DNA of 64,000 nucleotides from Haloterrigena sp. KLK7 (GTDB lineage Archaea > Halobacteriota > Halobacteria > Halobacteriales > Natrialbaceae): positions 1,860,001 to 1,924,000 of the forward strand of contig NZ_CP149787.1 of NCBI RefSeq assembly GCF_037914945.1, written 5' to 3'. The notes beneath the pieces were generated by a model. It was not told the DNA's origin. It saw nothing but the letters and a program-made list of their open reading frames with translations, and did not search any database. Within the stretch, counting starts at the first letter, position 1, and every line of letters begins with the position of its first letter. A program made the position numbers and the translations under genes. Below, piece after piece: positions 51,915 through 53,807 of this stretch.

Positions 51915-52316
51915 TCAGTCCTCGCCGTCCGCCCGATCGCGCAGCCGTCGCTTCTGGCGGCGTTCGGTCACGTGATCGATCCCGTCGGCCAGCTCGTCCC
52001 TGACCTCGGTCTCGAAGGCGTCGACCTCCTCGAGGAACTCCGCGGAGAACTCCTCGACGAGTTCGAAGGTCCACTGGTCGCTGACCGCGCCGGCGGGGAG
52101 GTGGTCGTCCCGGAGGGCGTCGGCCCACTCCTCGTGGCCGGCCTCGCGGAGGGCCTCCTCGGCGTCGCTCATCCGATCCATCGCGTGGCCGAGGTCGTGG
52201 TGGAACTCGAGCAGGGTGCCGTACGCCCGGTGAACGTGCTCGATACCGAGCTGGAGTTCGTGGAGCGCGTCCTCCTCGGCGTCGCTCAACTCGAGGTCGT
52301 CCGGGTCTGTCGTCAT
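51915..52316 (-). CDS. helical conserved haloarchaeal protein
   Basis: 133 aa, acidic, almost entirely helical with coiled-coil-like heptads (ELQLGIEHVHRAYGTLLEFH, HHDLGHAMDRMSDAEEALRE, FELVEEFSAEFLEEVDAFET). Several His are spaced in the first helix pair (HVHRAY, FHHDLGHAMD), which could bind a metal in a four-helix bundle. Family not recognised. Divergent from the Mrr-type gene with 129 bases between. Confidence 0.6.
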   Translation of the reverse strand: MTTDPDDLELSDAEEDALHELQLGIEHVHRAYGTLLEFHHDLGHAMDRMSDAEEALREAGHEEWADALRDDHLPAGAVSDQWTFELVEEFSAEFLEEVDAFETEVRDELADGIDHVTERRQKRRLRDRADGED

Positions 52317-52445
52317 AGGGGTCGGACCACGGACGCGATAAAAGCGCTTGGGCCAAACAGTGTCCGCGCCTGCCGTCGATTCTCACGGGCGATACTCGGG
52401 CCGCAACACTCTCGGCGGTCGACTCGAGAGCGAGTCGTGAACGCG

Positions 52446-53807
52446 ATGGCGATACTCGACGACCTCTCGGGCTACGAGTTCGAGGACCTGATGGAGGACG
52501 TGTTTCGACACTGCGGCTACGAGAACGTCCGGCAGTCGCGGCGGACGGCCGACGAGGGACGGGACGTCCTGATGGAAGAGGTCGTCGACGGCCGCCGCCG
52601 GGCGGTCGTCGTCGAGTGCAAACACACGGCGACCGTCAGCCGGCCGGTCATCCAGAAGCTCCACTCGGCGGTCGCGACCTACGACTACGACGGCCCGGTC
52701 CGGGGGATGGTGGTGACGACCGGCCGGTTCACCGACCCCGCACGCGAGTACGCCGCGAATCTGGGATCGAACCGAGAGGGCGGCGTCGAACTCCTCGACG
52801 GCCAGGACCTCCGGGAGATCGGCGAGGAGATCGGGTTGGACCTCTACAACGGCCGGATCGAGATCCTCTGCGAGGAGGCGCTCCGGCCGACCCACCCCAC
52901 CGCCGGTCGGGACGCGCCCGTCTTCGAGGCCGTCCGCGAGATCGAGAACCTCGAGGCCGCGACGATTCCGACGCCCGAGACGACGGTCGAACTCGAGCCG
53001 ATGGTCACGATCCGCGCGACGACCGACGCGACGTTCGAGACGTCGGTCGGCGTCGTCCACCGGATCGACGAGGCGACCGACCTCGCGATCCGCGCCGACC
53101 GCGACGAACCGCGGGTCGCGACCGGCGACGTTCGCGATCTCGTCGCGAACGCCTCGGCGTCCCGAATCGACCTCGAGTCGGCCGGCCTCGAGTCGACGTT
53201 CGACGGGGTCGAGCGTCGTCGGTTCGGGCAGACCGAGACCGAGTACAAGGAGTGGGCCGTCGACCGCCTCCGGCAGGCACAGACGACGACGGTCCAGTAC
53301 ACGGGCGGCAACAACGTCGACTACGAGAAGACCTGCACCCCCAAGCGGTCGGACGTCTCGATTCGGGAAATCGATCCCGTCTACGTTCCGCACGTCCGCT
53401 CCCGACTCTCGCTCGGCGAGTACGACTACCGGTACGCCTACCGCGCCGCCGGCCCCTCGCGGGCGACCACGCGAAACGACCTCCAGGAGTGCGTCCACTG
53501 CGGGACGGCGGGTGCGAGCGAGACCTACACCTACTGCGACAACTGCGGGAGCGTCAACTGCGAGGAGCACGTTCGGACGGAGCGACTCGAGGGCGACCCC
53601 GTCTGTACCGGCTGTGCCGTCACCGAGCGCTTCGCGCTCAAGACGAAGTACTTCTACGACGAAGCCAACCTCGAGGCCTTCCGCGAGGAGTACGCGGCCA
53701 TGCCGGTCCACGAGAAGGCCACGGAGAACGCCCCGCTGGCCGTCGGAAGCGTCCTCTGTGCGCTGCTCGCGGCCTTCCTCGTCGCGAGCTCGGTCGGCCT
53801 CGTGTGA
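52446..53807 (+). CDS. Mrr-type nuclease with zinc-ribbon region and C-terminal membrane anchor
   Basis: 453 aa from the ATG at 52446 (GTG three codons upstream possible). Residues 1-125 form a Mrr/restriction-endonuclease fold: GYEFEDLMEDVFRHCGYENV, then DEGRDVLM (Asp 40) and VVVECKH (Glu 57, Lys 59). The middle part has a beta-rich region of unknown nature. Residues about 347-395 hold paired Cys (CVHCG, YCDNCGSVNC, VCTGC) and EEH, like two zinc ribbons. A C-terminal hydrophobic helix (NAPLAVGSVLCALLAAFLVA) should anchor it in the membrane. No methylase lies nearby. Confidence 0.82.
   Translation: MAILDDLSGYEFEDLMEDVFRHCGYENVRQSRRTADEGRDVLMEEVVDGRRRAVVVECKHTATVSRPVIQKLHSAVATYDYDGPVRGMVVTTGRFTDPAREYAANLGSNREGGVELLDGQDLREIGEEIGLDLYNGRIEILCEEALRPTHPTAGRDAPVFEAVREIENLEAATIPTPETTVELEPMVTIRATTDATFETSVGVVHRIDEATDLAIRADRDEPRVATGDVRDLVANASASRIDLESAGLESTFDGVERRRFGQTETEYKEWAVDRLRQAQTTTVQYTGGNNVDYEKTCTPKRSDVSIREIDPVYVPHVRSRLSLGEYDYRYAYRAAGPSRATTRNDLQECVHCGTAGASETYTYCDNCGSVNCEEHVRTERLEGDPVCTGCAVTERFALKTKYFYDEANLEAFREEYAAMPVHEKATENAPLAVGSVLCALLAAFLVASSVGLV

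What the first reader, a model, noticed from the sequence alone, without database searches (positions are those of the whole stretch)
52446..53807. Membrane-tethered Mrr-type nuclease with zinc ribbons
A cytosolic restriction-type nuclease domain, a long central region, two Cys-rich ribbons and one C-terminal membrane helix are combined in one protein. Anchoring a nuclease at the membrane would place it where foreign DNA enters. I do not know of a described system with exactly this architecture in haloarchaea.
Basis: partly seen in the sequence, partly recalled or inferred. Interest (0 to 1): 0.6.

Follow-up and report, generated by a model that had tools for sequence, protein, structure and literature searches.

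The report
Tail-anchored Mrr-type nuclease of haloarchaea
The gene encodes an intact DNA-cutting enzyme that appears to be moored to the cell membrane by its tail, belongs to an unstudied family found in most haloarchaea and on many of their plasmids, and is probably a one-gene barrier to viral or plasmid DNA, though nobody has tested that.

Summary
Window 52446-53807(+) encodes 453 aa: an N-terminal Mrr_cat nuclease (E 2e-25) with D40, E57 and K59, a long middle, a Cys-rich module and one C-terminal hydrophobic helix. It is not an oddity. Matches occur in 223 of 391 genomes of the class and on some 70 haloarchaeal plasmids, annotated only 'restriction endonuclease'; full-length relatives (26-31%) occur in other families of the phylum. 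Among 135 full-length homologues plus the window protein, the catalytic residues and eight Zn ligands are almost invariant, and all 135 end in a hydrophobic helix.

Two corrections. The 'two ribbons' are better read as one eight-ligand cross-brace (FYVE-like) zinc module. The 'long central region' is a compact domain (AF2 pLDDT 91.5) with no Pfam family and no solved structural match (best probability 0.14).

The gene is solitary: no constant partner, and an apparent single-gene insertion or loss beside housekeeping genes in the window's own lineage. Best reading: a stand-alone, tail-anchored nuclease, latent until its central/zinc module senses foreign DNA or damage. Purifying selection is strong (dN/dS about 0.1). 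The defence role is inferred from domain type, plasmid spread and a partial defence-like hotspot; nothing tested shows it.

The parts
52446..53807 (+). Gene for the 453-aa tail-anchored Mrr_cat nuclease
   Evidence: ORF intact; start supported by 131/135 homologues with ATG at this place
52455..52817 (+). Mrr_cat PD-(D/E)XK nuclease domain, residues 4-124
   Evidence: Pfam E 2e-25; only Mrr_cat match in the whole genome; Foldseek of the full model: MspJI E 1.5e-5, AspBHI 7e-4
52563..52622 (+). Catalytic D40 ... E57-C58-K59
   Evidence: conservation; natural loss only in L025/L026 (E57A, K59E)
52893..53480 (+). Central domain, about residues 150-345, not in Pfam; invariant P185, T199, G202, Y285, N289, Y293, C297, P299
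   Evidence: conservation; AF2 pLDDT 91.5, pTM 0.80; no PDB match with probability above 0.14; no Pfam domain in this stretch
53490..53615 (+). Eight-ligand zinc module C349-x2-C352-x11-C364-x2-C367-x4-C372-x2-H375-x11-C387-x2-C390, cross-brace (FYVE-like) spacing
   Evidence: site-1 ligands lost together in L130/L137 while site-2 ligands are kept
53661..53723 (+). Charged juxtamembrane helices, residues 406-418 and 421-426
   Evidence: AF2 secondary structure; K424, E427, N428 nearly invariant
53730..53801 (+). C-terminal transmembrane helix, residues 429-452; protein ends at the membrane
   Evidence: hydropathy in 135/135 homologues; AF2 helix
52401..52415 (+). Conserved promoter-like element CCGCAACACTCTCGG (relatives: CCGAAACGCTATCGG)
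   Evidence: upstream alignment of Natrialbaceae homologues; assignment as promoter inferred
52437..52440 (+). GTGA, likely ribosome-binding site before ATG 52446
   Evidence: conserved upstream of ATG with variable spacing; inferred

Best explanation
A self-sufficient, single-gene, C-tail-anchored nuclease. Shown by sequence and models: an N-terminal Mrr_cat PD-(D/E)XK domain with a complete active site, a conserved central domain of unrecognised fold, an eight-ligand zinc module of cross-brace spacing, and a C-terminal hydrophobic helix present in every full-length homologue examined. Inferred: the protein is inserted tail-last, leaving nuclease, central and zinc parts in the cytosol at the inner face of the membrane. 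Inferred: the nuclease is held quiet and is released or aimed when the central/zinc module meets its trigger (incoming viral or plasmid DNA, a modified base, a DNA end, or a signal of damage), so that DNA near the membrane is cut. In function this would be a one-protein defence or genome-guarding factor. Confidence: anatomy about 0.9; active nuclease about 0.85; membrane location about 0.85; defence against foreign DNA about 0.5.
For: Active-site and ligand conservation over 135 homologues plus the window protein and low dN/dS. Tail helix universal and confined to the C-terminus, present also in relatives at 26-31% identity outside haloarchaea (L148, L149). Nuclease fold nearest to the modification-dependent enzymes MspJI and AspBHI. 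Accessory, mobile distribution: 223/391 class genomes, several copies in many; some 70 haloarchaeal plasmids; the plasmid-rich clade mixes Haloferacaceae, Haloarculaceae, Natronomonadaceae, Halobacteriaceae and Natrialbaceae, whereas the named members of the window's clade are all Natrialbaceae. Solitary gene: no constant neighbour; occupied versus empty site between a flavodoxin gene and a 133-aa gene. One subclade lies downstream of an AddAB-like helicase-nuclease cassette with a DUF234 ATPase matching the PADLOC candidate PDC-S27, or near an N6-adenine methylase. PADLOC matches of the nuclease domain to PDC-S02, ZorD and type IV REase models.
Against: No defence genes directly beside the window copy: neighbours are an LLM oxidoreductase, a 133-aa protein, a flavodoxin and, further out, aconitase-like and P-type ATPase-like ORFs (the last two named from their sequences, not scanned). 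The AddAB-like link is loose: of 29 loci with that helicase, three have the nuclease within 1.7 kb and a fourth at 5.1 kb, from the match coordinates. PADLOC and Mrr matches cover only the nuclease part. Two homologues with a dead active site (L025, L026) remain under purifying selection, so catalysis is not needed for every role. The trigger and substrate are unknown.
Confidence: 0.5

Rival explanations
1. Plasmid-competition (exclusion) factor: haloarchaeal megaplasmids carry the nuclease to keep out other plasmids; chromosomal Natrialbaceae copies are domesticated.
For: Some 70 plasmid records, several plasmids of one strain with copies, mixed-family plasmid-rich clade; decayed copies in several genomes.
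Against: A clade on non-plasmid contigs appears vertically maintained in Natrialbaceae; multiple copies coexist in one genome, which strict exclusion would hinder.
Confidence: 0.2
2. Housekeeping DNA processing at the membrane: end trimming, repair, or digestion of DNA taken up as nutrient.
For: Strong purifying selection; single copy among metabolic genes in the window's genome.
Against: Patchy: absent from 168 of 391 class genomes and from one of six species of the genus; apparent single-gene gain or loss at one site; frequent on plasmids.
Confidence: 0.17
3. Modification-dependent (type IV) restriction enzyme that happens to be membrane-bound: the central domain reads a modified base. (This is one possible trigger within the best explanation, stated apart because it predicts methylation dependence.)
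For: Nearest nuclease folds are MspJI and AspBHI, both modification-dependent; stand-alone gene without a methylase partner in most loci.
Against: Central domain shows no SRA or other reader match in Pfam or PDB; many Mrr_cat proteins are not type IV enzymes (general knowledge). No co-occurrence test with methylases was run.
Confidence: 0.25
4. Membrane signalling or scaffolding protein in which the nuclease domain is used only for DNA binding.
For: Two natural variants E57A/K59E are otherwise intact and under purifying selection.
Against: 134 of 136 keep the catalytic set and the nuclease domain has the lowest dN/dS.
Confidence: 0.07

Closest known systems
Mrr_cat (PF04471) nucleases, incl. 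E. coli Mrr and Haloferax volcanii Mrr (HVO_0682)
   Same: Same catalytic domain.
   Different: No Mrr N-terminal domain match; adds central domain, zinc module and tail helix. The H. volcanii-type Mrr is reported absent from Natrialbaceae (PMC6471742), the family in which the window clade sits.
MspJI / AspBHI modification-dependent endonucleases
   Same: Best structural match for the nuclease part.
   Different: Their base-reading domain is not matched; they are not known to have a membrane helix (own knowledge).
COG4741 (Thermoplasma volcanium TVN1166), YraN-like archaeal nuclease with an N-terminal membrane helix
   Same: Membrane-tethered PD-(D/E)XK nuclease in archaea; speculated in 2005 to guard against foreign DNA (PMC1189080).
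   Different: Different nuclease subfamily, N-terminal rather than C-terminal helix; no central domain or zinc module described.
E. coli defence proteins from a functional selection (PMC9519451): Mrr-family nuclease plus beta-propeller; membrane-anchored DUF4041 protein with a DNA-binding/cleavage domain
   Same: Designs of nuclease plus sensor, or membrane anchor plus DNA-cleavage domain, recovered as anti-phage defences.
   Different: Other sensor domains; homology outside the nuclease was not sought.
FYVE-type cross-brace zinc finger (EEA1, RUFY1)
   Same: C-x2-C ... C-x2-CG-x3-C-x2-(C/H) ... C-x2-C spacing; profile match EEA1 E 0.006.
   Different: The R(R/K)HHCR lipid-binding signature is absent (signature from own knowledge).
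TREX1, the tail-anchored DNase of animals
   Same: Works-like analogy only: cytosolic nuclease on a C-terminal membrane helix (own knowledge).
   Different: Unrelated nuclease fold; no membership claimed or tested.

Membership tests
Mrr_cat PD-(D/E)XK nuclease | Catalytic domain above curated cut-off | tested here: met
   89.6 bits vs 21
Mrr_cat PD-(D/E)XK nuclease | Conserved D...(E/Q)xK active site | tested here: met
   D40 136/136, E57 133 + Q 1, K59 134
Mrr type IV restriction enzyme | N-terminal Mrr DNA-binding domain | tested here: not met
   Nuclease starts at residue 4; no other N-terminal domain
Mrr type IV restriction enzyme | Cleavage of methylated DNA | not testable with these tools
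   needs enzyme assay or transformation test
MspJI family | SRA-like modified-base reader next to the nuclease | tested here: not met
   Central domain has no Pfam domain and no PDB match; full-model match to MspJI spans only 133-151 columns
COG4741 membrane nuclease | N-terminal membrane helix and YraN-like nuclease | tested here: not met
   helix is C-terminal, nuclease is Mrr_cat
PADLOC PDC-S02 / ZorD systems | Match over the whole protein or partner genes | tested here: not met
   matches limited to residues 3-125; no constant partner
FYVE zinc finger | Eight ligands with cross-brace spacing | tested here: inconclusive
   spacing fits; weak profile match EEA1 E 0.006; PF01363 in only 2 of 77 members, best E 0.018; coordinated ligand loss in L130/L137 fits cross-brace
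FYVE zinc finger | R(R/K)HHCR phosphoinositide motif | tested here: not met
   window reads TYTYCDNC at this place
Tail-anchored membrane protein | Single hydrophobic helix at the extreme C-terminus, none elsewhere | tested here: met
   135/135 have it; only 2/135 have a second stretch above threshold
Tail-anchored membrane protein | Located in membrane, N-terminus cytosolic | not testable with these tools
   fractionation needed

The most novel reading that the evidence does not exclude
An undescribed family of archaeal innate-immunity proteins: a solitary membrane-tethered nuclease whose central domain has a new fold and senses invading DNA at the membrane, spread through haloarchaea on plasmids and with deep roots in other families of the phylum.
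Probability: 0.3. Interest if true: 0.75.

Novelty: new variant of a known kind. Interest (0 to 1): 0.45.

Why it matters
A highly conserved, multi-copy, plasmid-spread nuclease family matched in over half of the haloarchaeal genomes examined has, as far as I found, no described function. Copies sit on plasmids of well-known strains (pNRC200 of Halobacterium salinarum NRC-1, pNG600 of Haloarcula marismortui), so a deletion or transfer test is practical. If it restricts DNA at the membrane it would be a one-gene barrier that affects plasmid transfer, virus host range and genetic work in these archaea. The central domain has no match in Pfam or among solved structures and would be a new sensor or binding fold.

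Tried and rejected
Two tandem zinc ribbons: set aside for one cross-brace module. In L130/L137 the lost ligands (C352, C372, and H375 in L137) all belong to one site under cross-brace pairing but to both under tandem pairing; the two are sister sequences, so this is one event. Obligate partner of the AddAB-like cassette: rejected, only a few of 29 such loci have it nearby. Defence island around the window copy: not seen. Viral origin: no haloviral record (one bacterial nuclease-domain hit) and only nuclease-domain matches in viral contigs. GTG 52437 as start: rejected. Central domain fold: no PDB match; best viral-library match (probability 0.84, TM 0.30, rmsd 17.6) is not convincing. Sequence search of PDB with the single protein: nothing useful. 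Fusion to DUF6498 on the H. mediterranei plasmid: the matched stretch lies mostly outside that gene, so taken as a remnant. Bacterial homologues of the central domain: none among the plasmid rows shown at E 0.01, but bacterial genomes could not be searched with a profile. Co-occurrence with methylases: not tested.

Full report
What is there. Window 52446-53807(+) is an intact gene of 453 aa. Pfam finds Mrr_cat at residues 4-124, E 2e-25; the only other hit above its cut-off, NA-iREase1, covers the same stretch. It is the only Mrr_cat match and the only copy of this protein in its 4.6 Mb genome. NCBIfam has no model for it. Start: ATG at the same place in 131 of 135 full-length homologues.

How common. 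A search of 391 genomes of the class finds a match in 223, most of them full-length at 60-93% identity, often two to four matches per genome. Some of the weakest matches are other Mrr-type proteins or remnants, so 223 is an upper figure for the family; 216 of 377 good-quality genomes match. In PLSDB, 71 plasmids hold at least 80% of the whole protein and 69 hold at least 80% of the part behind the nuclease; the full-length rows listed are all haloarchaeal and nearly all annotated 'restriction endonuclease'. Three plasmid contexts were read: pNRC200, pCBA1112-01 and pNG600. In the phylum outside haloarchaea, three genomes have relatives matching most of the length (L148, L149, L150), and two more (L220, L221) have zinc ribbons, Mrr_cat, the central domain and several zinc modules but no C-terminal hydrophobic tail in the translation. 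So the central domain, wherever found intact, is fused to an Mrr-type nuclease, and the tail is a feature of the haloarchaeal and nearest branches.

Conservation. In an alignment of 135 homologues and the window protein, D40, E57, K59, H60, R66 and K71 and the eight Zn ligands are close to invariant, and so is a set of central-domain residues (T199, G202, Y285, N289, Y293, C297, P299). Departures are informative: L025/L026 carry E57A and K59E yet are still under purifying selection; L130/L137 lost C352 and C372. Mean dN/dS among five species of the genus is 0.10 nuclease, 0.18 middle, 0.21 zinc, 0.35 tail. The tail sequence drifts but its hydrophobicity never does, as expected of a membrane anchor.

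Structure. AF2 of the full protein: mean pLDDT 87, pTM 0.68, with helix 429-452 at the end. Foldseek against PDB: MspJI (1.5e-5), AspBHI (7e-4), AF1548 (2e-3), which I take to match the nuclease part. The central domain alone folds with pLDDT 91.5 and pTM 0.80 but has no PDB match better than probability 0.14. The Zn module profile matches FYVE domains weakly (EEA1 E 0.006).

Context. The gene has no fixed partner. In the window's lineage it sits between a 133-aa gene and a flavodoxin gene; in three Natrialbaceae loci these two neighbours lie about 100-200 bp apart with no nuclease between (L178, L179, L182), which points to single-gene insertion or loss. Five of six species of the genus have it. 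The upstream regions of Natrialbaceae homologues share an element CCGAAACNCTATCGG and a GTGA before the ATG, fitting an own promoter. The tree separates a Natrialbaceae clade holding the window copy from a clade that mixes families. In some of the latter, the gene follows an AddAB-like cassette by 64-112 bp, or a DUF234 ATPase (PADLOC PDC-S27) lies between. Among 29 genomes with that helicase the nuclease is within 1.7 kb in three and 5.1 kb in a fourth (coordinates; one confirmed), so this looks like a shared hotspot, not an obligate system.

Mechanism. Shown: complete active site, conserved fold, hydrophobic tail, purifying selection, mobility. Inferred: membrane insertion with the nuclease in the cytosol; latency controlled by the central/zinc module; DNA as substrate; foreign DNA as target. 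A plasmid-borne nuclease must spare its own replicon, so some trigger or discrimination is needed; which one is unknown.

Known or new. The catalytic domain is known; membrane-tethered nucleases as guardians were proposed in 2005 for COG4741 (PMC1189080), and nuclease-plus-sensor and membrane-anchored nuclease defences are documented in E. coli (PMC9519451). I found no paper describing this architecture; the library is open-licence only. Verdict: new variant of a known kind.

Noticed in passing
L025:1501-2865 and L026:1498-2856: Natural variants with E57A and K59E in the nuclease active site, otherwise intact and under purifying selection; possible regulatory or decoy paralogues.
   Followed up: partly
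L065, L070, L085-L088, L096, upstream of the nuclease gene: Haloarchaeal AddAB-like cassette (685-aa protein without a Pfam match, 301-aa PDDEXK_1 nuclease, 1153-aa UvrD helicase with C-terminal PDDEXK_1), sometimes with a DUF234 ATPase or an N6-adenine methylase: a likely defence-gene hotspot.
   Followed up: partly
L220:1473-3092 and L221:1921-3591: Relatives with N-terminal zinc ribbons, Mrr_cat, the same central domain and an array of several zinc modules, without a C-terminal hydrophobic tail.
   Followed up: partly
Plasmid-type loci such as L044-L084: Recurring uncharacterised haloarchaeal genes (190-aa protein, DUF6166 proteins, 131-aa protein) near the nuclease gene.
   Followed up: no
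G040, G308, G246, G168, G029 (fragments): Broken or partial copies of the nuclease gene, showing frequent decay.
   Followed up: no
window 51915-52316(-): 133-aa acidic protein with distant paralogues elsewhere in the genome; no family assigned.
   Followed up: no
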